IMG/VR virus record: IMGVR_UViG_3300045256_000805
Location: 1 to 29,863 of that record
Length of the DNA: 29,863 nt
DNA from: a virus
Direction: 5' to 3' (one strand)
Shown here: piece by piece, positions 5,022 through 28,187 of the stretch
Position numbering within the stretch: position 1 is the first letter of the stretch
Layout: every line of letters starts with the position of its first letter
Made by a program: the position numbers and the translations under genes
Notes under the pieces: generated by a model
What the model was told of the DNA's origin: nothing
What the model saw: only the letters and a program-made list of their open reading frames with translations
Database searches by the model: none

Positions 5022-5073
5022 GCGCGTCCGGCCAGTTTCGGGACTCGCACCGCATTCCATAAGGAGCCGCGTG

Positions 5074-7146
5074 ATGCCGCGCATGGACGATTCGCGCTTG
5101 CAGGCGATCTGCGAGGCCAAGCTCACCAACGCGCTTGGCTGGTTCGGCGGGCGGCTGTCCAAGGAGCGGCAGCTCGCCATGAGCTACTACCGCGGCGATC
5201 CGTTCGGCAACGAACAGGAAGGCCGTTCGCGGGTGGTCTCGCGCGATGTCGCCGAAGCGATCGACAGCGTGATGCCGAGCCTTGTGAAGGTCTTCGCGGC
5301 CACCGACACGGTGGTCGTGTGTCAGCCGCGCACGCCCCAGGACGAAGCCGCGGCGAAGCAGGCGACGGATTATCTCAACTGGGTGTTCCAGACGCAGCCG
5401 AGCGCCTTCGACCTGCTGCAGACATGGATCAAGGACGCGCTCCTGGCGAAGCTGGGGGTGGTGAAATCCTGGTGGGACGAGAGCACGGACGTCGCCACCG
5501 AGCGTTACGAGGGATTGACCCGGTTCCAGTACCTCACCCTGCTCGGCGACGAGAACGTCGAAGTGGTGAGCGTCACCAGCCGGCCGCCGACCGCGGCAAT
5601 GACGATGCCGGAGCCGGCGCAGCCCAACGACGGGGCGGCGATGGATTGCATCATCCGACGCACCAACAAGACCGGTCGCATCCGCATCGAGGCGATCCCG
5701 CCGGAGGAATTCCTGACCGACCGCCGCGCCGTCTCGCTGGCGGACGCCACGTTCTGCGCCCACCGCAGCCGGCGCACCGTCTCGGACCTGATCGCGATGG
5801 GCTATCCCAAGGCGCTGGTGCAGGACCTGCCCGGCGGCGACGAGCTCGACCTCAATCCCGAGGTGCTGACCCGGTTCGCCGACGACGACGAGATGCCGCA
5901 GCGGGAGGACGGCGACCTGGACACGGCGATGCGGCCGGTCTGGATCGCGGAGTGCTACCTCAAGGTGGACTACGACGGCGACGGTGTTGCCGAGTGGCGC
6001 AAGGTGATCCTGGCCGGCGGCGCCTCGACGCGACTGCTGGAGCACGAGCCTTGCGACGGCCACCCGTTCAGCGCCTGGACGCCGAACAAGCTGCCGCACA
6101 AGCTCTACGGCGAATCCCTCGCCGACAAGACCATGGACCTCCAGCTCATCAAGTCGACGGTGTGGCGGCAGTGCCTGGACGGAATGTATTTCAACAACGC
6201 GCCGCAACTGGTCGTGGTGGAGGGCCAGGCGAATATGGACGACGTCCTCACCCGCCGCCCCGGCGGCGTGATCCGGGCGCGCAGCGCCGGGGCGGTGACG
6301 CCGCTGCCGGTGCAGGACGTCTCGCAGCCAGCCTTCGCGATGATCAACTATCTCGACGCGGTGCGCGAGGCGCGGACCGGCGTGCGCCGGTTCAGCGCCG
6401 GACTCGACGCCGACGCCCTGAACCCCTACGGCGGTACCGCCACCGGTGCGCGGCTGGTGGAGGACTCGAGCCAGGACCGCATCATGCTGCTCGCCCGCAA
6501 TTTCGCCGAGCAGGGCCTGAAGCCGCTGTTCGAGCGGTTGCTGGAGCTCACGTGCAAGCACCAGGACAAGCCGATGACGGTGCGGCTGCGTGGGGCCTGG
6601 GTGGACATCGACCCTTCCACCTGGGCGACCAAGATGGACATGACGGTGACGGTGGGCCTGGGAACCGGCAATCGCGACACCCAGGTGGGCCAGCTCCTCA
6701 CCATGCTTACCCAGATCGACCAGCCGATCGTGCAGCTTCAAGGCGGGTTGGGCGGACCCCTGCTGACGCCGAACCACATCTACAACAAGCTGGCGAAAAT
6801 GGTGGAGGCGATGGGGTATCGCAACGTCGCCGCGTTCTACGGCGACCCTGCCACGTCACCGCCGCCGGCCGCCGCGCCGCCCCAGGCGCCGCCGCCGAAT
6901 CCCATGGTCGACCTGGCGCGTGCGCAGATCGCCCTGGAGCAGACCAAGGCCGCCGCGGCGCTCGATCTCAAGCAGCAGGAGGCGGCAAGCCGCGCGGCGC
7001 TGGCGCGGGAAAAGGCGCTGCACGACATGCAGCTCGCCCAGCTCAAGGCCGAGCATGAGATTGCCCTCGACAAGCTGCGCGCCGCCGCAGAGGTGGAAAG
7101 CGCGCGCCTGAAAGCGGGCGCGGCGCCGGCTCCGCCCGCGCCTTAG
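5074..7146 (+). CDS. Portal protein (podovirus/P22-like long type)
   Basis: 690 residues from ATG 5074, with AAGGAG seven bases upstream; a GTG at 5071 is also in frame. The N-terminus (MDDSRLQAICEAKLTNALGW) and the segments 'RSRVVSRDVAEAIDSVMPSL' and 'FVKV..FAATD' match the long portal family of P22/BPP-1-like podoviruses (head-to-tail connector). The C-terminal 80 residues, after a Pro-rich linker (APPQAPPPNP), are a long charged coiled coil, like the C-terminal barrel helices of long portals. It forms the DNA channel and docks TerL. The position right after TerL and before scaffold and capsid supports the call. Confidence 0.88.
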   Translation: MPRMDDSRLQAICEAKLTNALGWFGGRLSKERQLAMSYYRGDPFGNEQEGRSRVVSRDVAEAIDSVMPSLVKVFAATDTVVVCQPRTPQDEAAAKQATDYLNWVFQTQPSAFDLLQTWIKDALLAKLGVVKSWWDESTDVATERYEGLTRFQYLTLLGDENVEVVSVTSRPPTAAMTMPEPAQPNDGAAMDCIIRRTNKTGRIRIEAIPPEEFLTDRRAVSLADATFCAHRSRRTVSDLIAMGYPKALVQDLPGGDELDLNPEVLTRFADDDEMPQREDGDLDTAMRPVWIAECYLKVDYDGDGVAEWRKVILAGGASTRLLEHEPCDGHPFSAWTPNKLPHKLYGESLADKTMDLQLIKSTVWRQCLDGMYFNNAPQLVVVEGQANMDDVLTRRPGGVIRARSAGAVTPLPVQDVSQPAFAMINYLDAVREARTGVRRFSAGLDADALNPYGGTATGARLVEDSSQDRIMLLARNFAEQGLKPLFERLLELTCKHQDKPMTVRLRGAWVDIDPSTWATKMDMTVTVGLGTGNRDTQVGQLLTMLTQIDQPIVQLQGGLGGPLLTPNHIYNKLAKMVEAMGYRNVAAFYGDPATSPPPAAAPPQAPPPNPMVDLARAQIALEQTKAAAALDLKQQEAASRAALAREKALHDMQLAQLKAEHEIALDKLRAAAEVESARLKAGAAPAPPAP

Positions 7147-7213: not shown

Positions 7214-7748
7214 ATGAATTCCCACTCTCATCGCGCGGGCGCGGACAGCGACGCGAGCCGCCTGGCGTATATCCTCGAGGTGCTGGAACGGCCCGACCCG
7301 GACGCGGCGGTGAGGGCGGCGGGCATGGCGCTGGCGCGGGCGCGGGACGCAGGCAGCGGCGGCTTGCGCCAGCAGCACCTGGCGGAAGCGCAAGCGCACA
7401 TCGCCCGGATCGACCCGCGGCGGCAGGGCCGCGCGGTGCAGCAGTTGCAGGGCCAGGTGCTGGCGCTGCAAGGCCGGCGAGGCGACACCCGGCTGGCCCA
7501 CGTGACCCCGGGGGAGGTGGTGATCCCGCAACGCCTGCAAACGCCGGCGGTGATGGGGTACCTGGCGGCGGCGGCGCGAGCCGCGGGGCTCGATCCGCGC
7601 AGCCTGCTGGTGGGGCACCCGGCCGGCAAGATCAACCCCCGCACCGGGCAGCAGGAGTTCTGGTCGATCATCGGTGCCTCCGACGACGAGGACAACCCCG
7701 GCTGGGACGTCACCGGCGACGAGGGCGACTTCGATCCGGGCGACTACG
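7214..7748 (+). repeat. Direct repeat copy 1 (module N-terminal half)
   Basis: About 535 bp that align without gaps to 11094-11628 (constant offset 3880), with only scattered substitutions. A 58-bp stretch at 7563-7620 is also identical to 9383-9440, and 7523-7604 partly matches 13163-13247. These are substrates for homologous recombination across the island. Confidence 0.9.
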
Positions 7749-8164
7749 ATGGATGGGACGGCGGAGAAGGGCCGGACGGCGGCAGCGACGGCCCAATCGA
7801 GACCGTGACCGTCACCGCGCCACGCGATCATACGGATTCATTCTGGCAGAACCTCAACCCGATTTCGTCAGCCAACGCGGCGAACGATCCGCCGGGACCG
7901 TATCCTTCAAATCAACAAATCTATCGGGGCATATTCGCACCGAGCGATCCCGATGTCATTAAGGGGCTTTCGGACGAGAACTTATACCACTATCAGCACA
8001 GACTTGAGGCAGAGCGGGCATTTCAGAAAATTTTCCAGTACGGCATGGGCAAGTATGCTGGTCCGCTCGGGGAGGCGGGGGCTTCATCGGCGTTCAGAGA
8101 CCTCGATCCCATCTTCTCGCTCTATGCTGCGGAATTCGCTCGTCGCGGGTTACAGTATCCGTGA
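7214..8164 (+). CDS. Modular phage protein, copy A: conserved N-terminus with unique C-terminal domain
   Basis: 316 residues, ATG 7214 after AGAGGAG. Residues 1-173 are nearly identical to the gene at 11094. They include a helical part (about 14-88), the motif GDTRLAHVTPGEVVIP (90-105), LAAAARAAGLDPRSLLVGHP (117-136) and NPRTGQQEFW (141-150). The 'GDT.LAH.TPGE' and 'NPRTG..EF' motifs recur in phage tail/virion-associated proteins known to me. An acidic Gly/Asp linker (155-194) leads to IETVTVTAPR (195-204), then a 112-residue C-terminus (Tyr/Phe-rich, with YHYQHRLEAERAFQKIF) found nowhere else here and clearly AT-richer. I infer a carrier-plus-payload design. The payload function is unknown; no catalytic motif is visible. 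Confidence 0.75.
   Translation: MNSHSHRAGADSDASRLAYILEVLERPDPDAAVRAAGMALARARDAGSGGLRQQHLAEAQAHIARIDPRRQGRAVQQLQGQVLALQGRRGDTRLAHVTPGEVVIPQRLQTPAVMGYLAAAARAAGLDPRSLLVGHPAGKINPRTGQQEFWSIIGASDDEDNPGWDVTGDEGDFDPGDYDGWDGGEGPDGGSDGPIETVTVTAPRDHTDSFWQNLNPISSANAANDPPGPYPSNQQIYRGIFAPSDPDVIKGLSDENLYHYQHRLEAERAFQKIFQYGMGKYAGPLGEAGASSAFRDLDPIFSLYAAEFARRGLQYP
7778..7824 (+). repeat. Junction block before the variable C-terminus (copy A)
   Basis: 47 nt encoding GGSDGPIETVTVTAPR that match 9604-9650 at 45 positions. Flanking sequence upstream is diverged and downstream is unrelated. It is placed exactly where the conserved carrier ends and the unique C-terminal domain begins, so it is a likely exchange point. 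Confidence 0.7.
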
Positions 8165-8170
8165 AGTGAA

Positions 8171-9307
8171 CTAACGCGTCGGACTATTCAAACCCGCACG
8201 TAGAGCGCTTACGCAATTCCCAGTATTCACGATCTCGAACGTGATCCTCAGGGCATCGTCGGGACCCTCAAATCCCACGGTGTTTGTAATGCCGTCGACC
8301 GGAACAGGCGCTTGGGAAAGGCGCACCGTTTTATCCCAAGCCCTTTCATAAGCCGTCATATCGAACGGCCCTGGGGAGATTGCGAGGAGGCGCGCGAACC
8401 AAACCGAGAGCGCATGCGCTTCGAATAGACCGTGGTCCATTGCGTAGTCGAGATGGTCGAGCATCTCGGTCTTGCGGTCCTTCCAATTCGTCACATAGAT
8501 CACGCAGGCCAGCGCAAACCGGGCATGCGGCAGGCCGAGTGCCGCGGCTTTGACAAATAGCTCCTCGGCTTCTGCGGGTCGGGCGAATGCCTTAGGTCGA
8601 TCCAGAAGATCTACACCCTTGCGATACACCGCGATCGCTTCCGGATCGGCCGAACGGGGCCTTTCGTATGTAGTGCGGATCGCGGACTCGTCGTCCGGCG
8701 TCGGGAACATTGCCTGGTAGGGCACCCAGATTTCCATCGGCTCACTGTAAAAGGGTTGAGCGCAAATGCCAGAAACAAGCGCGTGCGTGATCAGCCGCCG
8801 GGCTGCTGCAGCGCTTCCGATCGTGATCGTGCCGGGCGCGCCCGTCACGAGCTTCGGATCGTTGGCCCGGTCATAGAGCTGCCTCACCAATAGCGATGCG
8901 CGGGAATAGTTTGAAATCGCCGGGGTGCCGAATCCCGAGTACTCGTAATTGATCAGCAGGGCCTGGGCCTCCAATACGCCATGCGTGGCGGCGTATAGGG
9001 CAAGGTTGTAGGCCTCGCGCGTCCGGCCCTTAGCAGCCTCGGTATGAAAACTGGCCGAGTAGATGGTGCAGGCGAGACCGTAGTAGGCGTGCGGAAGGCC
9101 AAGGTTTGCGGCCCTGACGAAGAGCTCTTCGATGGCGGTGAAATCGCGCTTCCCCTGATACTGCTCGAGCAGACGCATGCCTTCGTTGTACGCGGCGACC
9201 GCTTCGGGATTCGCCGGTGGGATAGCGGCCTCTGGCGCGACCTTGGGAGCGGCGGCGCAGGAAGCCAGACCGAGGGCAAGCACGCCGACGATGACGATGC
9301 ACCGCAT
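8171..9307 (-). CDS. Secreted Sel1-like-repeat lipoprotein, copy 1
   Basis: 378 residues on the opposite strand, converging on copy A with a 6-bp gap. The N-terminus is a lipoprotein signal (VGVLALGLASC, lipobox LASC, Cys17). The mature protein is two related halves (about 33-200 and 221-370). Each starts with a 'PEA.A.Y..G' helix pair, then a Sel1/TPR-like repeat (EELF.(R/K)AA.LGLPHA..(G/A)LAC.IY), then a GAPGTITI-like beta segment. It is paralogous to 11986-13095, including the upstream region. Periplasmic or membrane-anchored location is expected. Candidate roles are immunity factor for the linked module or superinfection exclusion; both are inference. Sel1 repeats mediate protein-protein contacts. 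Confidence 0.75.
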   Translation of the reverse strand: MRCIVIVGVLALGLASCAAAPKVAPEAAIPPANPEAVAAYNEGMRLLEQYQGKRDFTAIEELFVRAANLGLPHAYYGLACTIYSASFHTEAAKGRTREAYNLALYAATHGVLEAQALLINYEYSGFGTPAISNYSRASLLVRQLYDRANDPKLVTGAPGTITIGSAAAARRLITHALVSGICAQPFYSEPMEIWVPYQAMFPTPDDESAIRTTYERPRSADPEAIAVYRKGVDLLDRPKAFARPAEAEELFVKAAALGLPHARFALACVIYVTNWKDRKTEMLDHLDYAMDHGLFEAHALSVWFARLLAISPGPFDMTAYERAWDKTVRLSQAPVPVDGITNTVGFEGPDDALRITFEIVNTGNCVSALRAGLNSPTR

Positions 9308-9381
9308 GGGAGTCTCCTCTCCAAGAGGTTGAGAATATCAAAGCCCGAGGAACCGGACAAAGCGCGTATGCACGGAGACCT

Positions 9382-9969
9382 GTGGCGGCGGCGGCGCGAG
9401 CCGCGGGGCTCGATCCGCGCAGCCTGCTGGTGGGGCACCCGCGCGGACGCATCAACCCTCGCACCGGGCAGCAGGAGTTCTACGAAGGCTGGGAGACCAT
9501 CGGCAGCGAAGGCAACTTCGACCCAATCAGCGAAGATTGGTGGAACGACGGCGAGATGCGGGACTTTGGTGCGGATGGCGGGTCGCCGGGCGGTGGAGGC
9601 AACGGCGGCAGCGACGGCCCGATCGAGACCGTGACCGTCACCGCGCCTCGAACCCCTGATTTCCGACCCGACCCGCCGAAGTTGATAGATCCTGGTCTAC
9701 CCGACATCGGAGTGCCCACTGCCTTCACTGTCGGTCCCAGTAAGGAAGATCTTATTAAGGCGCGGGATGCACTGCGCGAAGCAATCCGGCGGATAGAAGT
9801 AGGACAGCATGTCATTCACGGGGCGTCGATTGCGGGAATCGTAGCGGGTGCGCCTGTAGAATTACCGACAGGTCTCGCTTGGGCGGCATCGGAGATTGGA
9901 TCGCAATATCTGAACAGCAAGCTAGACGATCTAAACAGGCAGATAGAGCAGTTCGATGGACCGAAATGA
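9382..9969 (+). CDS. Truncated module, copy B: orphan C-terminal domain
   Basis: 195 residues from GTG 9382 (GGAG eight bases upstream, a weak start). It begins inside the shared module at LAAAARAAGLDPRSLLVGHP; its first 58 bp (9383-9440) are identical to 7563-7620. The whole N-terminal carrier (about 117 residues) is missing. It keeps NPRTGQQEF, a Gly/Asp linker and ETVTVTAPR, then a unique 106-residue C-terminus with a hydrophobic stretch (HGASIAGIVAGAPVELPTGL) and a coiled-coil end (SKLDDLNRQIEQF). It may be a silent cassette, translated only after recombination with copy A or C, or a pseudogene. The layout resembles orphan toxin modules of polymorphic toxin loci. Confidence 0.55.
   Translation: MAAAARAAGLDPRSLLVGHPRGRINPRTGQQEFYEGWETIGSEGNFDPISEDWWNDGEMRDFGADGGSPGGGGNGGSDGPIETVTVTAPRTPDFRPDPPKLIDPGLPDIGVPTAFTVGPSKEDLIKARDALREAIRRIEVGQHVIHGASIAGIVAGAPVELPTGLAWAASEIGSQYLNSKLDDLNRQIEQFDGPK
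9383..9480 (+). repeat. Partial direct repeat of the module (copy B breakpoint)
   Basis: 98 bp aligning without gaps to 7563-7660 (offset 1820); the first 58 bp are identical. Similarity stops abruptly at 9382, marking the junction between the inverted Sel1-like gene's upstream region and the broken module. Confidence 0.85.
9604..9650 (+). repeat. Junction block before the variable C-terminus (copy B)
   Basis: 47 nt encoding GGSDGPIETVTVTAPR, matching 7778-7824 at 45 of 47 positions. The sequences after the two blocks are unrelated, so this is the border of the variable payload. Confidence 0.7.
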
Positions 9970-10004
9970 TTGGATTGGTTATCTTGCCAAGTAGGGCATA
10001 GGCA

Positions 10005-10352
10005 ATGACAGACGAACCAAGGCCGATCCAGCGCACAATCGCCGGGACAGCGGGCGCGAGTTGCTTGCTAGGTCTTGCGAGTGGCTGGTCTGTCTTGGCT
10101 CTGCCTTTTGGACTCGCGAATCTGTTCCACAACAGTACAGGTGAAATCGGAGCGTTCGTCTTCTTTATCGTGTGGATCGTGTACGTGGTCTACAGGTGCT
10201 GGTTCAACTTGCTGGTTCCCTCGCTGCTACGCGGCGAAGTGTTCGAGGGCTTGCGCACATATCGCTTACAGATGCTTTATTCGCAAAGCGCGGTTGTTGG
10301 CGCGATCGCTGCAGCACCTATCGCTATTCGAACATGGGCCTCCGTGACGTGA
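10005..10352 (+). CDS. Small membrane protein, about three TM segments
   Basis: 115 residues from ATG 10005, 35 bp after orphan module B. Hydrophobic segments at about 12-38 (LLGLASGWSVLALPFGLANL), 48-71 (FVFFIVWIVYVVYRCWFNLL) and 91-112 are likely membrane helices. GC content is visibly lower than the phage structural genes, as in the module C-termini. Its end overlaps the next ORF by 19 bp. Family not recognised. Its place after a payload that itself has a hydrophobic stretch makes an immunity role plausible but unproven. Confidence 0.5.
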   Translation: MTDEPRPIQRTIAGTAGASCLLGLASGWSVLALPFGLANLFHNSTGEIGAFVFFIVWIVYVVYRCWFNLLVPSLLRGEVFEGLRTYRLQMLYSQSAVVGAIAAAPIAIRTWASVT

Positions 10353-10711
10353 TCGACGGCGAAAAGGCCGACGCCATTGCGGCCGAAGCCGCGCGTGCCA
10401 CCGCGCATGGCTTCGCGGCCGGACTCATCATGAGCGGGTCGGCGGCACTGGGCATTTGGATTACCGGTTCGCTCGCCCCAATCTCCGCTGCGATAGCCGT
10501 CGGAGGCGTGATTCTGGGGGTGGCGATGTACGTCGCCTACTTCGGACTGTTCAGCACGGCAAAGGTGACGGCCCGCCTTGAGAAACTTGGCCTGACGCCC
10601 GCGCCCGAGTTGACGTTCGGACGCATGGACAGGCTGATGCGCCGCCTGTGGATGTTCGGGTGGACCTTCGGGTTTTTCGAAGGTCTCCTGCTCAATGTCC
10701 TCGCGATCTAG
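10334..10711 (+). CDS. Small membrane protein, about three TM segments
   Basis: 125 residues from ATG 10334, overlapping the previous gene's end. The first 22 residues are a charged amphipathic helix (GLRDVIDGEKADAIAAEAAR). Likely membrane segments are about 24-45, 49-70 and 106-125 (WMFGWTFGFFEGLLLNVLAI). It is probably co-translated with 10005-10352. I do not recognise the family. The two genes together may form a membrane complex tied to module B. Confidence 0.5.
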   Translation: MGLRDVIDGEKADAIAAEAARATAHGFAAGLIMSGSAALGIWITGSLAPISAAIAVGGVILGVAMYVAYFGLFSTAKVTARLEKLGLTPAPELTFGRMDRLMRRLWMFGWTFGFFEGLLLNVLAI

Positions 10712-10792
10712 GGGCGGCATCTCGCCTCCGTTGACGGCCAGGGCGCGCAAGGGCTTCCGGCGCGATGCTTCCCGACTGACAGGATGTCCCCG

Positions 10793-11053
10793 ATGACCCG
10801 CGAAGACGCTATCCGGCGGGGGGAGGCGGCGCGCCGCCTCTTGGAGGATGCGACCGCGCAGGCGGCGCTGGCGGAGATCGCGGCGGAGTGCACGGCGAGC
10901 TGGGCGGACTCCAGTCCTGCGGATGTGGCGGCCCGGGAAGATGCCTATCGCCTGCATCGCTGCGTCGCGCTGCTGCGTCAGAAGCTGGAAGCCTGGGCGG
11001 CAGGCGCTGCCCTGGAGAAGGACCGGGCGACCGCACGTCCGACCGAGCCATGA
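10793..11053 (+). CDS. Small phage protein typical of the portal-scaffold interval
   Basis: 86 residues from ATG 10793 (AGGA nine bases upstream); ATG 10784 would add three residues. The product, starting MTREDAIRRGEAARRLLEDA, is a short helical protein with a conserved-looking 'ADVAAREDAYRLHRCVALLR' segment. From memory, similar small helical proteins sit between portal and scaffold in related phages, so this is probably an original structural-operon gene left between accessory insertions. Role unknown. High GC returns here, contrasting with 9650-10711. Confidence 0.6.
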   Translation: MTREDAIRRGEAARRLLEDATAQAALAEIAAECTASWADSSPADVAAREDAYRLHRCVALLRQKLEAWAAGAALEKDRATARPTEP

Positions 11054-11093
11054 GCCGATCTTTGAGACAGCTCAACACAGGAGGGCGTCTTCC

Positions 11094-11628
11094 ATGAGCA
11101 GCCACCTTCATCGTGCGAGCGCGGACAGCGACGCGAGCCGCCTGGCGTATATCCTGGAGGTGCTAGAGCGGCCCGACCCGGACGCGGCGGTGAGGGCGGC
11201 GGGCATGGCGCTGGCGCGGGCGCGGGACGCAGGCAGCGGCGGCCTGCGCCAGCAGCACCTGGCGGAAGCGCAAGCGCACATCGCCCGGCTGGACCCGCGG
11301 CGGCAGGGCCGGGCGGTGCAGCAGTTGCAGGGCCAGGTGCTGGCGCTGCAAGGCCGGCGGGGCGACACCCGGCTGGCCCACGTGACCCCGGGGGAGGTGG
11401 TGATCCCGCAACGCCTGCAGACGCCGGCGGTGATGGGGTATCTGGCGGCGGCGGCGCGCGCCGCGGGGCTCGACCCGCGCAGCCTGCTGGTGGGGCACCC
11501 GCGCGGGCGCGTCAACCCCCGCACCGGGCAGCAGGAGTTCTGGTCGGTGCAGGGTGCCTCCGACGACGAGGACAATCCCGGCTGGGACGTCACCGGCGAC
11601 GAAGGCGACTTCGACCTGGGCGACTACG
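11094..11628 (+). repeat. Direct repeat copy 2 (module N-terminal half)
   Basis: Gapless partner of 7214-7748. Recombination between the two would delete or duplicate the 3.9 kb between them, which holds Sel1-like copy 1, module B and the membrane genes. Confidence 0.9.
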
Positions 11629-11900
11629 GGCAGGGTGGCGGCGGAGAGGGGCCGGGCGGCGGAGAGAGTCCCGCGGACTCGCCAGAGACGAACCTACCGC
11701 CGCCGCAATACGGTCCTTGGGGCCACTGGAACCAGCCAACGACGGAGCCATCGAATACCCGCCCGCCACCGCCTCCTGCCGGTCCGTATGGAACAATCAT
11801 TCAGCCGACCGCCCAGCAGCCGACGGATACTCATCAGCCTCCCGACACGAACGGGCCTTGGGCCGATGGACCCATCTTCGGCTACCGATTCTGGCCATGA
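11094..11900 (+). CDS. Modular phage protein, copy C: conserved N-terminus with Pro-rich C-terminus
   Basis: 268 residues from ATG 11094, with AGGAGGG nine bases upstream. Residues 1-173 match copy A almost completely (helical part, GDTRLAHVTPGEVVIP, NPRTGQQEFW). After the acidic Gly linker it lacks the ETVTVTAPR block and ends in a low-complexity Pro/Gln/Thr tail (PPPPPAGPYGTIIQPTAQQP, then GPIFGYRFWP). This may be a natural short form, a degraded payload, or a structural tail. The longer frame starting at 10848 runs through the previous gene in another frame and is not the real start. Function inferred only from the shared carrier and the position after the portal region. Confidence 0.72.
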   Translation: MSSHLHRASADSDASRLAYILEVLERPDPDAAVRAAGMALARARDAGSGGLRQQHLAEAQAHIARLDPRRQGRAVQQLQGQVLALQGRRGDTRLAHVTPGEVVIPQRLQTPAVMGYLAAAARAAGLDPRSLLVGHPRGRVNPRTGQQEFWSVQGASDDEDNPGWDVTGDEGDFDLGDYGQGGGGEGPGGGESPADSPETNLPPPQYGPWGHWNQPTTEPSNTRPPPPPAGPYGTIIQPTAQQPTDTHQPPDTNGPWADGPIFGYRFWP

Positions 11901-11985: not shown

Positions 11986-13095
11986 CTAACGGGGCGCCGG
12001 CTTGGGGCTGATATCCCAGGAGTCCCAGCACGTGCCGAAGTTGGCGATCCTGAAGATCACCCTCAAGGCCTCGTCGGGACTCTCAAAGGTCACCGTCCCT
12101 GGGGCGCCGCTCACAAGGTCGGGATTCTGCGAGAGTTGAACGGTTTCGCGCCACAGCTTACCGACCTTCTCCAGGTCCGGAGGGAGGCTGATGCCCCGGT
12201 GCCGCAAGAACCAGACCAAGAGCGCCTTTGCCTCAAGGACATTGTGATCCGCAGCATATGCCGCGTGTGCGATCATCTCATCTCTTCGGTCTGTCCACCC
12301 AGCCGCATAGATCAGGCAAGCCAACCCAAAGCGCGCATGGGGAAGATCCAAGTCGGCGGCCTTCTTGAACAGGCGCTCAGCCCCGGAGAAGTCCGCGTAC
12401 TGCCAGGGACGATAGAGAAGATCGGTCCCTTGCCGGTATAATGCGACCGCCTCGGGTTTCGCGGCGGGTATCTTTGGCTGATCGACGCGCGCATTCGGAT
12501 CGGCATCCGGCATCCACAGTTGCTTCTCTTCCTCATAGAAGACCGGGCCGCACGGCTCCGACAGAAGCGCTTTCGTAATCAGTCGGCGTGCGTCGGCGGG
12601 GCTACTTATCGTGACGGTTCCCGGTGCGCCACTGATGATACCTGGCGAACGTGCGCGCTCGTATAACTGCTTCAGCAGGCGCGTTGCGACTCTATAGTCT
12701 TTGGCCTTCGTTGTGCCGATTCCCGAGAACTCGTAGTTTATCAGCAGCGCTTGCGCTTCCAGGACATTGCGGTATGACGCATAGAGCGCGAGTTCATAAG
12801 CCTCGTTGAGACGCTCCTTCGCCGCCGGTACCGAGCTCTGAGATGCATAGATCGTGCAAGCCAGCCCGTAATAGCCGTGCGGCAATCCGAGGCTTGCAGC
12901 CTTTCGAAACAGGGCCTCGATCGCGGCGAAGTCGTGCGGTGTTCCTCGAGCTTCCAGCCGTCGCATACCTTCGTTGTACGCAACGACGGCCTCAGGGTTG
13001 GCCGGCGGCAGCGAAATATCTTGAGCCTGTGTCGGCGCGCCTGCGACTAACGCGGCACACAACGCAAGATAACGCGTAAGGCAATAATGGAACAT
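11986..13095 (-). CDS. Secreted Sel1-like-repeat protein, copy 2
   Basis: 369 residues, leftward, converging on module C (85-bp gap). The N-terminus is a type I signal peptide (YLALCAALVAGAPTQAQ, likely cleavage near TQA-QD) rather than the lipobox of copy 1. The mature part aligns end to end with 8171-9307: the PPANPEAV start, FRKAASLGLPHGYYGLACTI, VLEAQALLINYEFSG, ISGAPGTVTIS, then a second half with the same order ending SGAPGTVTFESPDEALRVIF. I judge about half of the residues identical. The 5' leaders also look related. It is predicted periplasmic, acting by protein-protein contact. Same role options as copy 1: immunity to a module payload, or an exclusion/fitness factor. Confidence 0.75.
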   Translation of the reverse strand: MFHYCLTRYLALCAALVAGAPTQAQDISLPPANPEAVVAYNEGMRRLEARGTPHDFAAIEALFRKAASLGLPHGYYGLACTIYASQSSVPAAKERLNEAYELALYASYRNVLEAQALLINYEFSGIGTTKAKDYRVATRLLKQLYERARSPGIISGAPGTVTISSPADARRLITKALLSEPCGPVFYEEEKQLWMPDADPNARVDQPKIPAAKPEAVALYRQGTDLLYRPWQYADFSGAERLFKKAADLDLPHARFGLACLIYAAGWTDRRDEMIAHAAYAADHNVLEAKALLVWFLRHRGISLPPDLEKVGKLWRETVQLSQNPDLVSGAPGTVTFESPDEALRVIFRIANFGTCWDSWDISPKPAPR

Positions 13096-13454
13096 CGGAG
13101 CCTCCAGTCTGCCGAGGTCATATTATCAACGCCTTGGAAGGGCACCAAGCTAACCGAGGCCCGTGATCCTGCAACGCCTGCAGACGCCGGCGGTGATGGG
13201 GTATCTGGCGGCGGCGGCGCGGCGGGCGGGTCTCGACCCGCGCAGCCGAAGATCCGGTCGAATGCTCCGCCGATTGGACGACCGTGCGTGTGCTCTTGCA
13301 GGCACCGTGAGCTTTGACGAGCCCACGAATCGCGCGTAAACGGGTAATGCAATCCTGACATCGGTGCGCCGACGAAGAGCCGCGACGAAGAAGTCGGCGG
13401 CGCGCGGCACCGTCTCCCGCTGCGGCGGACCCATTCACCACAGGCGAGGCTGTC
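13096..13454. other. Gene-free stretch with module remnant D
   Basis: 359 bp between the inverted Sel1-like gene and the scaffold gene. It holds the leader of the Sel1-like gene (13096-13162), an 85-bp module remnant (13163-13247), and about 200 bp in which I see nothing except the scaffold ribosome site (GAGG at 13446-13449). Confidence 0.7.
13163..13247 (+). pseudogene. Module remnant, copy D
   Basis: 85 bp aligning without gaps to 11400-11484, encoding the module's VI.QRLQTPAVMGYLAAAAR.AGLDPRS region (residues 103-130). One change turns IPQ into ILQ, and the AAG run reads RAG. Both ends break off abruptly, and the frame runs into unrelated sequence. It is a leftover of a former module copy on the far side of the Sel1-like gene, as copy B is for the first Sel1-like gene. 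Confidence 0.8.
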
Positions 13455-14417
13455 ATGGCCGACCGCGAGGCAGCGCCGTCCCTGGACGGCGTCGCCAACG
13501 AAATCCTGACGATTCTCGGCGAGGACGACCCCCGGTCGCCGCCGAACCCCGAACGCGAGGGCGACGACGGCGACGCCGAAGCCACCCCCGAGGAGGCGGC
13601 CGACGCCGCCGACCCAGCCGCCGACACGGAAGCGGAGACGCCCATCCAGGCGCCGGCGAGCTGGAAAGCGGATGCCAAGGAGCGGTTCAAGGACCTCCCA
13701 CCCGCGCTGCAACGGACCATCGTTGAACGGGAGAGGGAACGCGAATCCCACTTCAGCAAGACGCAGCAGGACGCCGCCCGTGCGCGCAAGGTCCTCGAGG
13801 CCGAACGCCAGGCGGTGCAGCAGGAGCGACGCGGCAGTCTCGATACCCTGTCGCTGCTTTCGGAAGCGTTCCAGACCCTAGACCCCGTCCTCGCCGAGGG
13901 CGCCAAGACCGATTGGCAGAAGCTTTCGCGCGAGGACCCCGCTGCCGCCCAGGCGAAGTGGGCGCAGTACCGGGACCGCCTGCAGGCCTTGCAAGCGGTC
14001 CAGGCGCGGCGCGCACAGGCTCACGAGGCGGCGCAGCAGGAGGGAGTACGCCACGCCCACCGCACCCTCCAGGACAAGCTGCCGTTCTGGAACGATGCCG
14101 GCCGGCGCGGCGCGTTCCTCGATGCCCTCGACCACTATCTGCATGAGCACGGGTTCACGCCGGCGGAGCGACGCTCCCTGGCGGACCCGCGTGCGATCTT
14201 GGTGGCGCGAGAGGCGATGCTGTATCGCCAGCTGATGGCGCAGCAGGCCCAGATCGCCGCACGGCGGCGGGGCGCGGCCGGCGGACGGGTGCTGAGGTCC
14301 CAGGCATCGACCGAGAGCAGGGAGGTTTCGGGACGGGCGCAGGCTCTTGCCAAGCGTGCCGCGCGAACCGGCCGCCTGGACGATCAGGCGGCGGCGATTC
14401 TCGCGGCCTTGGACTGA
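13455..14417 (+). CDS. Capsid scaffolding-like protein
   Basis: 320 residues from ATG 13455 with GAGG upstream. The acidic, disordered N-terminus (about 25-75, Asp/Glu/Ala/Pro-rich) is followed by ASWKADAKERFKDLPPALQR, a conserved-type scaffold motif. Then come long charged coiled-coil segments (about 90-240) and a basic C-terminus (AALAKRAARTGRLDD region). The composition, length and place directly before the major capsid gene match podovirus scaffold proteins, which guide capsid assembly and then leave. No protease gene is seen nearby. Confidence 0.75.
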   Translation: MADREAAPSLDGVANEILTILGEDDPRSPPNPEREGDDGDAEATPEEAADAADPAADTEAETPIQAPASWKADAKERFKDLPPALQRTIVERERERESHFSKTQQDAARARKVLEAERQAVQQERRGSLDTLSLLSEAFQTLDPVLAEGAKTDWQKLSREDPAAAQAKWAQYRDRLQALQAVQARRAQAHEAAQQEGVRHAHRTLQDKLPFWNDAGRRGAFLDALDHYLHEHGFTPAERRSLADPRAILVAREAMLYRQLMAQQAQIAARRRGAAGGRVLRSQASTESREVSGRAQALAKRAARTGRLDDQAAAILAALD

Positions 14418-14439
14418 ACCCCTCCACGGAGAGAAACCC

Positions 14440-15414
14440 ATGGCGATCGTCACGAATACCGCGCTGACGTTCTCGTCGATCGGAAATCGCGAGGACCTGT
14501 CGGACAAGATCTTCAACCTGAGCCCCACCGACACCCCGTTCCAGGCCGGCATCGGCAAGACCAAGGCCGAAGGCACATTCCACGAGTGGCAGACCGACGT
14601 GCTGGCGGCGGCCGCCAACAATGCCGTGATCCAGGGCGACGATACGTCGACCTCCTACACGTTCTCCGCCGTCGCGCCGACGGTGCGCCTGGGCAATCGC
14701 ACGCAGATCAGCCGCAAGGACGTGGTGGTCTCCGGCACCCAGGACGCGGTGAGCAAGGCCGGCCGCAAGAAGGAGATCGTCTATCAGCTCCTGAAGAAGG
14801 CCAAGGAGCTGGCCCGCGACATGGAGTACGTGCTGGTCCAGAACGGCGTGAAGGTGACCGGCAATTCCACCACCGCGCCGCAACTGGCCGGGCTCGAGTC
14901 CTGGTACGGCCAGACGACGTCCACCGTCAGCACCAACGTCAGCCGCGGCGCCGGTGGCGCCAATGCGAGCTCGAACCAGACCGTGGCGCCGACGGACGGA
15001 ACCCAACGGGCGCTGACCGAATCCCAGCTCAAGAGCGTGATTCAGGGCTGCTGGACCAACGGCGGCGACATCGACCTGATCATGGCCGGGCCGTTCAACA
15101 AGACGGTGATTTCCACCTTCACCGGCAACAACACCCGCACCCAGGACACCAGCGACAAGAAACTGGTGAGTGCGATCGACGTGTACGTGTCGGATTTCGG
15201 CACCCATCGCGTGGTGGCGAACCGGTTCCAGCGCGAGCGCTCGCTGCACGTGCTGATGACGGACATGTGGGCGGTGGCCTACTTGCGGCCGAAGCAGACC
15301 ATCGATCTGGCCAAGCTGGGCGACAACAGCAAGGCCATGATCATCGCCGAGTATTCCCTCGAGAGCCGCAACGACTCCGGCTCGGGCGTGGTGGCGGACC
15401 TGACCACGTCGTAA
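14440..15414 (+). CDS. Major capsid protein (SU10/DUF5309-like, HK97 fold)
   Basis: 324 residues from ATG 14440, preceded by GGAGAG. The N-terminus (MAIVTNTALTFSSIGNREDL) and the segments 'LSPTDTPFQAGIGKTKAEGT' and 'FHEWQTDVLAA' are the signature of the SU10-type major capsid family (DUF5309). Later segments 'ELARDMEYVLVQNG' and 'VYVSDFGTHRVVANRFQRER' fit the HK97-fold core. The size is typical. Hundreds of copies build the icosahedral head around the scaffold encoded just upstream. Confidence 0.87.
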   Translation: MAIVTNTALTFSSIGNREDLSDKIFNLSPTDTPFQAGIGKTKAEGTFHEWQTDVLAAAANNAVIQGDDTSTSYTFSAVAPTVRLGNRTQISRKDVVVSGTQDAVSKAGRKKEIVYQLLKKAKELARDMEYVLVQNGVKVTGNSTTAPQLAGLESWYGQTTSTVSTNVSRGAGGANASSNQTVAPTDGTQRALTESQLKSVIQGCWTNGGDIDLIMAGPFNKTVISTFTGNNTRTQDTSDKKLVSAIDVYVSDFGTHRVVANRFQRERSLHVLMTDMWAVAYLRPKQTIDLAKLGDNSKAMIIAEYSLESRNDSGSGVVADLTTS

Positions 15415-20416: not shown

Positions 20417-21658
20417 TTACCGAGGCGGCAGATAGTCGGTGAGATTTCGACGTACAAACTGCTCTAGCCTAACAGTAGCATATTCTCCCGGCGAGAAATC
20501 GAGGTACTGCTGCAACAGCCCGATACGTGCGGGCATGTCGAAATCAAGGTCGACCGTGCCGTCCACCGCCGCCTCGATCTCGGCCTCGAAGTGTTCGCGA
20601 TCGAACAGGAAGCAGATGTGTTTGCGGTGCTCCGGGTCTTCCCGCCAGAAGGTCTGGTCGTCGCGCGGCCGGCGCGCGTCGCCCCATTGGGGCACCAGGA
20701 TTCGCACCGGCGCGAGGAGCGATTCCAGCAAGGCCAGGGAATTGTATCCGATCACGACCCGCGCCCGCGGCGCCACGAGCGAAACGGGCTCGATCGACAG
20801 ATCCAAGAATCGCTCAGCTCCGGGAGGAAGCAATTTCCGGACGTCTTCACGGTCGGCGATATGTTTGCATTTCACAATGAAGCGGACACCAGAGGCTAGA
20901 TGCCGCTCGGCGCAGGATGCAAATATCAGGAGCATCTCACGGAAGCTTTCTCCCCCGAGGTAACCTTGATCGGCGTAGGATAGAAACACGATGCCATCGC
21001 GTGCCGCGTCCGCGACGGGATTTTGCAATCGGTCGACCCACGGGTCGAGCCGCGGAAAGCCGGTGATGAAGACCTTCTCGGATGGAAAGACTCGATTCTC
21101 GATAAGTTCTTCGCTTGCAGACCGTCCACCAACCGCGATGCCCTTGACGTCAGGTCTGAGGGTGTAAGTCTTGTAATAGTTCTTGTTCGATTCCCAGTGC
21201 CGCGGAAGGATTCCAACCTCTCTGTAAAGGACGAGGAAGGGAATACCGGACTTGGCGCAGGCGCGGCGCAGCCCTTCTTCGAAGCCGTAGTCGAACGCGG
21301 CCGAAATGATCGCCGCCAAGCGCACATGCCGTCTTAGCTTCTCGAGGAGAAGTGCTGCAAATTCCTCGGCCTTGGCCCAGCGATGTTCGAAGAGCGGTCC
21401 AACGCAGGCCCCATAGCTTGCCTGTCCCGCCATTTCCTTGGTCATCCACCTCGTCTGGGGCCGATACCACACAACAGCCGGGAGCTTGAGCCAGTTGAAC
21501 TCCCTGGCGCGGATTCGAAGCTCGTTCACGTCGTGATCGAATTGATCTCGCGACAGGCAGACGACCGAAGGCAGCGCCGGATCTCGAATCTGCTTCTTCA
21601 AGACCTCGGCGATGAGTGACGGCCAATCGGTGTTCGGGTCGTCGTAAGACTCTTCCAT
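20417..21658 (-). CDS. Probable GT-B-fold glycosyl/glycerophosphate transferase (surface polysaccharide)
   Basis: 413 residues, leftward, inserted between rightward tail genes. No signal peptide. The C-terminal half carries 'VFITGFPRLDPWVD', 'RFIVKCKHIADREDVRKLLP' and 'VVIGYNSLALLESLLAPVRI', the order and spacing seen in GT-B capsule/teichoic-type transferases and 'surface carbohydrate biosynthesis' proteins, where the last motif lines the donor nucleotide-sugar site. The lower GC content and opposite strand mark it as cargo. It probably changes the lipopolysaccharide or capsule of the lysogen; substrate unknown. Confidence 0.65.
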   Translation of the reverse strand: MEESYDDPNTDWPSLIAEVLKKQIRDPALPSVVCLSRDQFDHDVNELRIRAREFNWLKLPAVVWYRPQTRWMTKEMAGQASYGACVGPLFEHRWAKAEEFAALLLEKLRRHVRLAAIISAAFDYGFEEGLRRACAKSGIPFLVLYREVGILPRHWESNKNYYKTYTLRPDVKGIAVGGRSASEELIENRVFPSEKVFITGFPRLDPWVDRLQNPVADAARDGIVFLSYADQGYLGGESFREMLLIFASCAERHLASGVRFIVKCKHIADREDVRKLLPPGAERFLDLSIEPVSLVAPRARVVIGYNSLALLESLLAPVRILVPQWGDARRPRDDQTFWREDPEHRKHICFLFDREHFEAEIEAAVDGTVDLDFDMPARIGLLQQYLDFSPGEYATVRLEQFVRRNLTDYLPPR

Positions 21659-22220: not shown

Positions 22221-23465
22221 TCAAGGAATCCGATCGCCCAAGCGTGCGCAGTCGACTCTAATGTTGGTGTCCTTCTGATGACGTCGCAGACCAGGATCAC
22301 TTGCAGTTTCGCACAGGAAGTCCTGGTGGCGCATGCCAAGGATCGCGGCAGTGGGAGCCAAGCACGGGTCCTGTCCCGGATCGTGCGTCAGGACGATGAC
22401 ATTGGCGCCGGCGGGAGCCAGATACAGGGCAAGCATATTGGAGCCAAAGACTCCGAGCAGAGTCTCGCAATCGCCGAATAGGCTTTGCTGTTCGGCGAGT
22501 GACAGGTCGGCGGGATCGACGGAAATGAAGTTCTCGCTCTCCAAGAAGCTTTCAAACTCAAGCCTGTTCTCGATGAGGCGGGTACCGACACTTATTCGAT
22601 TCAAGAACACGCGCTTTCTCGGGGTCGGCGCCGCCGCGTGACGAGAAATTGCGCCCCTGACGAACCTCACATGCTCCGGGTTGGGGGGCAACGATCTTCC
22701 GGGTCGATAGACGTGCAACTTCCCGAAGGTGATTTTCGTTCCGGAGTCGCAAGGCAGAATGAGGCGGTCAGGAACGCCACATGCGCTGAGAGTCTCCAAC
22801 TGCCTTTCTGCCAGGCCGGAGGGTACGACCAGTGGAACATCCGGCGCAAAGCGGCGCGCGAGCGTTCGGGGAAGGAAGTCGATAAACCAATGTCCGACAT
22901 TCACGCTCGTCGGGGCCGAAATGAAAATGGCCTCCGGGATGTCGACCGTCTGCGGAGGCTCGTAGTAGGCGACGCCACCGTGGGCGCAGAAGTGCGGACG
23001 CGCAGCGAGCTTTGCAGTGACGTCCATATAGCCGCTGTCACCGAGGACCGTGCCGTCTTCAGCAATGACAAAATCCCACCCCGGGCACCACCGGGCGCCC
23101 TCGAGAAGCACATAGGTCGAGGGTTCGGTACGGTACGCGAAGGCCCTCGAATAAGGCGTCGAGGCACGGAGATCGACATCTCGAGCCGGAAACAGAACGT
23201 GCAACTCTGTCCCCTTAGCGCGGCACCACTCCTCCATTGTCGCGGTCGGCGCAGCCGTGAGCGGCAATTGCAGGTTGCTCTCCGGCCAGCCGCGCCGGAC
23301 CAGCGGCTCGATCAACCGCTGATCCCCGCATGCCGCCGCCGCGACGATTACGGCTTCCGCAGCATTTCGCTTCGCCGACGGGCTTGAAAAGAGTGCATCG
23401 CGGAGTTGAGCGTAGGATGCGCCGACTTCGCGCTTCCACTCCACAGGACTAGGACGTTGCACCAC
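22221..23465 (-). CDS. GT61-family (DUF563) glycosyltransferase
   Basis: About 414 residues; stop at 22221-22223, start uncertain (GTG at 23463, 23460 or 23442, all without a clear ribosome site). The frame is open far upstream, but antisense to the tail gene. Motifs of DUF563/GT61: 'NVGHWFIDFLPRTLARRF', 'RKRVFLNRISVGTRLIENRL', then 'ADLSLAEQQSLFGDCETLLG' and 'VFGSNMLALYLAPAGANVIV'. These enzymes add xylose or other sugars to glycans; phage copies are expected to modify lipopolysaccharide. It lies between the decayed and the intact tail gene start, so it arrived as cargo. Its 5' end may have been trimmed by insertion. Confidence 0.7.
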   Translation of the reverse strand: MVQRPSPVEWKREVGASYAQLRDALFSSPSAKRNAAEAVIVAAAACGDQRLIEPLVRRGWPESNLQLPLTAAPTATMEEWCRAKGTELHVLFPARDVDLRASTPYSRAFAYRTEPSTYVLLEGARWCPGWDFVIAEDGTVLGDSGYMDVTAKLAARPHFCAHGGVAYYEPPQTVDIPEAIFISAPTSVNVGHWFIDFLPRTLARRFAPDVPLVVPSGLAERQLETLSACGVPDRLILPCDSGTKITFGKLHVYRPGRSLPPNPEHVRFVRGAISRHAAAPTPRKRVFLNRISVGTRLIENRLEFESFLESENFISVDPADLSLAEQQSLFGDCETLLGVFGSNMLALYLAPAGANVIVLTHDPGQDPCLAPTAAILGMRHQDFLCETASDPGLRRHQKDTNIRVDCARLGDRIP

Positions 23466-27656: not shown

Positions 27657-28187
27657 ATGATCCGACGTGGCATTCATCCCAGCGCCGTCATCGACATACT
27701 CGGCCAAGCAATCATTCCCCATTCGACAATTGCCGAGCCGCTGGCGGTCATCTTTGTCGGTCTTGAGGGCAAGCTGGAACTGGGGGAGAGGAACACCCTT
27801 TATCCCCATGTTAGTCTGCGCATCGATAAGGGCTGGATGCGGAGCGGAGAGGAAGTATCGTTCGGCCCTGGCGTCAGCATTTACGAGCCGCGTGCCGGCC
27901 TCGAAATCGGCAGCCATTGCATGATCGCTGCCGGGGTTGCGATCTGCGGCACCTCGCACACGACAGCGCGTACCGACGTGCCCATGCGCCATCAAGAGGC
28001 GATTGCGCAGAAGATCGTTATCGAAGACGACGTGTGGGTGGGGATGCGCGCGGTCATCCTGCCGGGCGTGACGATCGGGCGCGGCTCGATCGTTGGCGCC
28101 GGCTCGATCGTGACTCGCGATATTCCACCGTTCAGCGTCGCATGGGGAAATCCCTGCAGCGTGCAACGATCGCGGCGTAACGACTGA
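27657..28187 (+). CDS. Left-handed beta-helix O-acetyltransferase (WbbJ/CysE-like)
   Basis: 176 residues from ATG 27657. Hexapeptide repeats run along the protein, most clearly IGSHCMIAAGVAI (84-96) and IEDDVWVGMRAVILPGVTIG onward (122-154). The catalytic His101 sits in CGTSHT, as in the maltose/galactoside O-acetyltransferase family, and the ending 'VTRDIPPFSVAWGNP' is typical. The N-terminus has extra beta-helix turns. It would transfer acetyl groups to a sugar, most likely the host O-antigen or capsule. Its place between holin and endolysin is unusual and indicates cargo. Confidence 0.8.
   Translation: MIRRGIHPSAVIDILGQAIIPHSTIAEPLAVIFVGLEGKLELGERNTLYPHVSLRIDKGWMRSGEEVSFGPGVSIYEPRAGLEIGSHCMIAAGVAICGTSHTTARTDVPMRHQEAIAQKIVIEDDVWVGMRAVILPGVTIGRGSIVGAGSIVTRDIPPFSVAWGNPCSVQRSRRND

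What the first reader, a model, noticed from the sequence alone, without database searches (positions are those of the whole stretch)
7214..11900. Possible new polymorphic effector family directly downstream of the portal gene
Seen: two genes (7214, 11094) share a nearly identical 173-residue N-terminal half and then differ completely. A third (9382) keeps only the last part of the shared half and has yet another C-terminus. The variable ends of A and B are AT-richer than the carrier. Known: polymorphic toxins, including MuF-type prophage toxins located near portal genes, have exactly this carrier/variable-payload layout. Inferred: the shared part is a virion- or secretion-associated carrier and the C-termini are exchangeable payloads. 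I see no MuF domain, so this would be a separate carrier type.
Basis: partly seen in the sequence, partly recalled or inferred. Interest (0 to 1): 0.85.

Follow-up and report, generated by a model that had tools for sequence, protein, structure and literature searches.

The report
Phage-borne swappable toxins with immunity genes
A phage protein has been reused as a carrier onto which bacteria and their phages bolt many different predicted toxins, mostly cell-wall cutters, each with its own predicted protective gene beside it; the window holds two full carriers and two broken pieces, beside two secreted protector-like genes.

Summary
A (7214) and B (11094) share a 95%-identical 173-residue half. 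C (9382) keeps its last third plus a linker also found in A. A fourth fragment, missed, lies at 13160-13282. Relatives show a new polymorphic family: one carrier occurs about 70 times in 20 of 73 genomes of one Rhodospirillales-like family, up to 8 per genome, and in related phages. The attached domains are unrelated: GH24, M23, M15, GH73, SleB, DPBB, 3D, Ntox44, DUF6973. Copies with the same payload share the same adjacent small gene (9/48 pairs against 10/1709), and that gene usually encodes a secreted or membrane protein (22/35 against 126/577): a toxin-immunity layout. In the window the convergent genes beside A and B are Sel1-repeat secreted proteins, like known T6SS immunity proteins. 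The carrier core is a virion-type domain, single-copy in other phages. T6SS and carriers never co-occur. A TonB-box-like motif sits in 17 of 60 linkers, including A and C. Not shown: toxicity, immunity or delivery route. Payloads A and C match nothing known; B probably carries no payload. A new variant of prophage polymorphic toxins, not MuF.

The parts
7214..8164 (+). Carrier A: helical N-terminus and core (7214-7732), disordered linker with the TonB-box-like motif IETVTVTAP (about 7796-7822), payload A (about 7828-8161)
8171..9307 (-). SelA: lipoprotein-like Sel1-repeat secreted protein, convergent with A; candidate immunity protein
9382..9969 (+). C: carrier truncated at residue 117, with the shared linker (9602-9650) and a different payload (about 9652-9966); displaced cassette
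10005..10352 (+). g10: small protein with hydrophobic segments directly behind C; candidate membrane immunity protein
   Evidence: crude hydropathy only
10334..10711 (+). g11: small membrane-protein-like ORF behind g10; candidate immunity protein
   Evidence: crude hydropathy only
10784..11053 (+). g12: small phage gene; similar small genes lie near the portal and carrier in L193, L227 and L255 (by eye; one weak match)
11094..11900 (+). Carrier B: same carrier half as A, then a Pro-rich tail without any recognisable payload
11986..13095 (-). SelB: paralogue of SelA (52% identity) with a Sec-type signal, convergent with B
13160..13282 (+). D: fragment of the carrier core without payload
5071..7146 (+). 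Context: SU10-type portal, upstream neighbour of A
   Evidence: PF23899, E 1e-207
13455..15414 (+). Context: scaffold (13455-14417) and SU10-type major capsid protein (14440-15414)

Best explanation
The locus is a small toxin-immunity cluster of a new polymorphic family built on a phage virion-type protein. SHOWN: one carrier (N-terminal helices plus the core GRxGDTxxAHxTPGExxxP...QTP...NPxTGxxEF) is followed, after a linker, by many unrelated domains, mostly peptidoglycan hydrolases, and the payload type predicts which small gene lies next door. INFERRED: the carrier loads the protein into the virion or the protein is released at lysis (no signal peptide); the payload acts in the periplasm or envelope of a neighbouring or newly infected cell; the neighbouring secreted, lipo- or membrane protein is the immunity protein, encoded on the opposite strand in the window so that it could be made without the late operon. 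In the window, A with SelA is the intact cassette, C with g10/g11 is a displaced cassette, and B with SelB has lost or never had a payload. Direct copies of the core flank each cassette (A-SelA-C and B-SelB-D), so homologous recombination could swap payloads.
For: Carrier found in 20/73 genomes of one family, up to 8 copies each. Pfam domains over cut-off on the same carrier: Phage_lysozyme, Peptidase_M23, Glucosaminidase; Ntox44, DPBB_1, 3D, DUF6973; M15_4/VanY, Hydrolase_2. Same-payload pairs share the immediate neighbour family 9/48 against 10/1709, permutation 1/20000. Immediate neighbours are secreted- or membrane-like 22/35 against 126/577, p 6e-7. SelA/SelB have the Sel1 fold, as have the immunity proteins Sel1E (PMC7108748) and Tli5b (PMC13133936; PA5086-PA5088 structures appear). 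Homologues of SelA/SelB occur in 2/73 genomes, one about 1.5 kb from a decayed carrier, one beside an SU10 portal. No T6SS sheath gene in any carrier genome. SU10 portals concentrate in carrier genomes, 5 of 7 (p 0.014). Core is single-copy and payload-free in 76 of 77 other viral contigs.
Against: Payloads A and C have no homologue and no confident fold. SelA and SelB are alike although A and B differ behind the carrier, so a strict one-toxin-one-immunity pairing is not shown in the window. Some payload-partner exceptions exist (L097b/L193a share a partner with different payloads). Nothing has been shown to be toxic, protective or packaged.
Confidence: 0.7

Rival explanations
1. Ordinary virion-associated lysins or ejection proteins: the C-terminal hydrolases open the cell wall during phage entry, and the variety reflects host adaptation, not warfare.
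For: Most recognised payloads are murein hydrolases; the core is a virion-type domain in other phages; genes sit in morphogenesis clusters in the window, L193, L227 and L091.
Against: Many copies lie singly among host genes; Ntox44, a named bacterial toxin family, and DUF6973 are also carried; payload-specific secreted neighbours have no use for an entry enzyme; several copies per phage.
Confidence: 0.15
2. Delivery variant of the best explanation: TonB-dependent bacteriocins. The proteins leave at lysis and cross the outer membrane of kin cells through a TonB-dependent receptor, using the linker motif as a TonB box, as colicin M does and, from my own knowledge, pesticin.
For: TonB-box-like motif in 17/60 linkers against 0.08 expected by shuffling and 4/752 other genes; one of those four is a receptor-like host gene with VEEIVVTGTR behind its signal peptide; linker predicted disordered. 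Colicin M has the TonB box ETLTV, targets the cell wall and has its immunity gene on the opposite strand (PMC8469651).
Against: The motif lies in mid-protein, not at the N-terminus; 43 of 60 copies lack it under this regex; the regex was chosen after seeing examples; no receptor-binding domain was identified.
Confidence: 0.25
3. The window's copies are decaying duplicates without function: a failed remnant of the family.
For: C and D are truncated and B lacks a payload; decayed copies exist elsewhere (L188).
Against: A keeps an open frame with the family linker and a convergent partner gene; nearly half of the A/B nucleotide differences in codons 1-178 are synonymous (17 against 19 nt).
Confidence: 0.1

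Closest known systems
MuF polymorphic toxins of temperate phages (PMC5576092)
   Same: Prophage-encoded carrier with variable C-terminal toxin domains; genes in the packaging/head region; proposed delivery by phage particles
   Different: No MuF domain; unrelated carrier core; mostly murein hydrolases; many free-standing chromosomal copies; found in an alphaproteobacterial family, whereas MuF toxins were described in phages of Firmicutes
Colicin M-like bacteriocins (ColM polymorphic toxins, PMC5821083, PMC8469651)
   Same: Act on cell-wall synthesis from the periplasm; TonB box; immunity protein facing the periplasm; immunity gene on the opposite strand
   Different: Different catalytic domains; the carrier is a phage-type protein; the TonB-like motif lies mid-protein and is unproven
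T6SS murein-hydrolase effectors with immunity proteins, including Sel1-repeat immunity (Sel1E, PMC7108748; Tli5b, PMC13133936)
   Same: Same kinds of payload and of periplasmic partner; Sel1-like repeat fold; gene next to the toxin gene
   Different: No T6SS in the genomes that carry it; a different carrier; SelA and SelB are phage-borne and convergent; protection untested
Core-domain proteins of marine podovirus-like contigs
   Same: Same core motif
   Different: One copy per contig, amphipathic or glycine-rich tails with a tape-measure-like end, no payload exchange, no TonB-like motif

Membership tests
Polymorphic toxin system (general) | Conserved N-terminal trafficking part with non-homologous C-terminal domains | tested here: met
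Polymorphic toxin system (general) | C-terminal domains are toxic | not testable with these tools
   Ntox44 and hydrolase homology only; none found for the window's payloads
Polymorphic toxin system (general) | Cognate immunity gene adjacent to the toxin gene | tested here: met
   Payload-specific adjacent genes, secreted or membrane-like; protective activity untested
Polymorphic toxin system (general) | Displaced cassettes and recombination near the payload junction | tested here: met
   C and D with 93-96% DNA repeats of core and linker; actual swaps not observed
MuF toxins | MuF domain | tested here: not met
   No Pfam or PHROG match in A, B or C
MuF toxins | Encoded in temperate phages, in the packaging module | tested here: inconclusive
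   True for the window and some relatives; most other copies are among host genes
T6SS effectors | T6SS present in the genome | tested here: not met
   VipB in 10/73 genomes, none of them among the 20 with carriers
TonB-dependent bacteriocins | TonB box | tested here: inconclusive
   Motif enriched, position unusual, binding untested
TonB-dependent bacteriocins | Receptor-binding domain and TonB-dependent killing | not testable with these tools
   No match for the carrier fold
Sel1-repeat immunity proteins | Sel1-like repeat fold | tested here: met
   Profile of SelA, SelB and relatives against PDB Sel1 proteins E 2e-32; Foldseek top matches are Sel1 proteins
Sel1-repeat immunity proteins | Protects against the neighbouring toxin | not testable with these tools
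   needs experiment

The most novel reading that the evidence does not exclude
A phage virion-type protein has become the shared chassis of a swappable arsenal that is encoded both in prophage morphogenesis clusters and as free-standing chromosomal toxin-immunity cassettes. It is released with or inside phage particles at lysis and pulled into kin cells through TonB by a colicin-M-like linker, so prophages would act as delivery vehicles for the host's own orphan toxins.
Probability: 0.25. Interest if true: 0.9.

Novelty: new variant of a known kind. Interest (0 to 1): 0.74.

Why it matters
The literature searched here named one phage-specific polymorphic toxin class, MuF. A second, unrelated virion-type carrier with dozens of payload-partner pairs would show that phage structural proteins are repeatedly turned into antibacterial delivery chassis. 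It also gives a list of candidate murein-hydrolase/inhibitor pairs from bacteria in which no T6SS was found, and testable predictions on virion loading and TonB dependence.

Tried and rejected
Family searches of the window's own proteins in Pfam, PHROGs, NCBIfam and PADLOC gave nothing useful for A, B and C. The carrier half found nothing among 50,697 phage records. A first pattern scan had a miscounted gap and returned nothing; the corrected one found the family. Payloads A and C: no convincing homologue in 73 genomes. Fold searches of model A: no significant match (the model is weak, pTM 0.33). T6SS cargo was rejected by co-occurrence. The idea that A and C share one helical-hairpin payload was not supported (z -0.5), although L097a-L227a and L227b-L227c are similar (z 5.2 and 7.3). 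A first, stricter signal-peptide count (13/35) suffered from wrong gene starts and was replaced by a count with generous starts on both sides. A simple promoter scan was uninformative.

Full report
OBSERVATION. The window is a 29,863-base IMG/VR virus record with an SU10-type portal and major capsid protein, a scaffold gene and a CI-like repressor gene (478-1143, by eye), so a temperate phage is likely. A and B share 173 residues at 95% identity, C keeps the last part, and a fourth copy of the core lies at 13160-13282. DNA repeats run at 93-96%. A and C also share the linker GSDGPIETVTVTAPR. The layout is: portal, A with convergent SelA, C, g10, g11, g12, B with convergent SelB, D, scaffold, capsid. 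C and D each start just beyond the start of a Sel gene, so each payload-plus-Sel block is flanked by direct copies of the core. Recombination between copies would exchange payloads; this is an inference from the sequence.

THE FAMILY. A degenerate pattern for the core found relatives in viral contigs and in Rhodospirillaceae MAGs; their N-terminal helices align with the whole carrier of A and B. A profile found 20 of 73 genomes of one family positive, with up to 8 copies each, but only 5 of 385 in the class sample. I fetched the neighbourhoods. Sixty copies had a usable post-core region, including those of the window; they fall into many payload clusters.

PAYLOADS. Over curated Pfam cut-offs: Peptidase_M23, Glucosaminidase and Phage_lysozyme; Ntox44, DPBB_1, DUF6973, 3D and M23; M15_4/VanY, Phage_lysozyme, Glucosaminidase, Hydrolase_2 and DUF6973. 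Below cut-off or by eye: M74-like, NlpC/P60-like, GH104-like, glycine-zipper and PBECR-RNase-like. The payloads of A and C match nothing convincing. The B tail is Pro-rich.

PARTNER GENES. The immediate downstream gene has a signal-peptide- or TM-like N-terminus in 22/35 cases against 126/577 other genes of up to 400 aa (a crude hydropathy rule with generous start choice on both sides). Pairs of copies with the same payload share the immediate neighbour family in 9/48 against 10/1709. Several of the ten exceptions are probably same-payload pairs split by the clustering (glycine-zipper L179/L195/L216, GH104-like L197/L207, L097a/L227a). The four GH73 copies L183b, L203, L212 and L219 lie in different genomes, next to different host genes as far as I looked, yet share a secreted neighbour at 38-51% identity. 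This is the strongest sign of toxin-immunity pairs.

THE WINDOW'S PARTNERS. SelA and SelB are Sel1-repeat proteins. Their only homologues in the 73 genomes lie about 1.5 kb from a decayed carrier (L188) and about 300-400 bp from an SU10 portal (L255). In the L097 and L227 phage loci, payload-bearing carriers likewise face convergent small genes, most with a signal peptide and several Sel1-like. Sel1-type immunity is established elsewhere: Sel1E against VgrG4 (PMC7108748), Tli5b (PMC13133936). A convergent arrangement would let immunity be expressed in the lysogen; that step is inferred.

DELIVERY. Carriers have no signal peptide by eye, many of their partners do: the toxin should leave by lysis and act in the envelope. 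Against T6SS: no carrier genome has the sheath gene (p 0.03). For a virion origin: the same core is a single-copy protein in 76 of 77 other viral contigs, with amphipathic or glycine-rich tails; only one contig is multi-copy with payloads. In several of these phages it lies behind a homologue of the window's g24 tail gene. For a TonB route: the linker motif [DE][TEGQ][IVM][TVIE]V[TNRK] is in 17/60 copies against 0.08 by shuffling, and a receptor-like host gene has it behind its signal peptide. The regex was written after seeing the examples, so the enrichment is partly descriptive, though the gap is very large. Virion cargo and TonB entry do not exclude each other.

LIMITS. The hosts are MAGs of unknown completeness, and absence counts are weak. 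The shared-neighbour test uses copies that are not fully independent. Gene starts are approximate. Structure models are of low to medium quality (mean pLDDT 71 for SelA, 63 for A). No toxicity, protection or virion data exist.

VERDICT. The payload idea is right at the level of the family, and the system is arranged like a prophage polymorphic toxin system. It is not MuF and not T6SS. I rate it a new variant of a known kind.

Noticed in passing
window 9308-9380 (-) and 13096-13165 (-): The leaders of SelA and SelB look alike by eye (TTGxxx, 15 nt, GATAWT, then GGAG-rich stretches before the start), which hints at their own promoters; the consensus scan did not flag them.
   Followed up: partly
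window 20417-21658 (-), 22221-23315 (-), 27657-28187 (+): Two minus-strand genes in the tail region look like glycosyltransferase or polysaccharide genes and a hexapeptide acetyltransferase-like ORF lies before the lysozyme gene (by eye): possible surface-modifying cargo.
   Followed up: no
L264-L329 (viral contigs): The core domain is widespread in marine podovirus-like contigs, one copy each; many end in a tape-measure-like DDVPAMLTAGEFVMT stretch. No Pfam or PHROG family covers the core.
   Followed up: partly
L183:7418-11827: Three carriers in tandem, with M23, GH73 and M74-like payloads, each followed by its own small secreted gene, near ribosomal protein S4-like genes.
   Followed up: yes
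L211:7083-8541: Three tandem copies of one putative immunity family (YTITGxxxxDPxPEEKKDRV) behind a single M74-like carrier.
   Followed up: partly
L099, L101 (genome contigs): Records titled Candidatus Marinimicrobia fall in the same genome family as Rhodospirillaceae MAGs: probably mislabelled.
   Followed up: no
L182:8849-9751 (-): In a prophage close to the window's (g24 70%, g18 76% identity), the N-terminal part of a carrier runs into an unrelated glycosyltransferase-like stretch beside TerS: a deletion junction or an assembly join.
   Followed up: no
L043:1-768: A phage contig of another lineage has the core followed by a different C-terminal domain, so payload exchange may not be confined to this family.
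   Followed up: no
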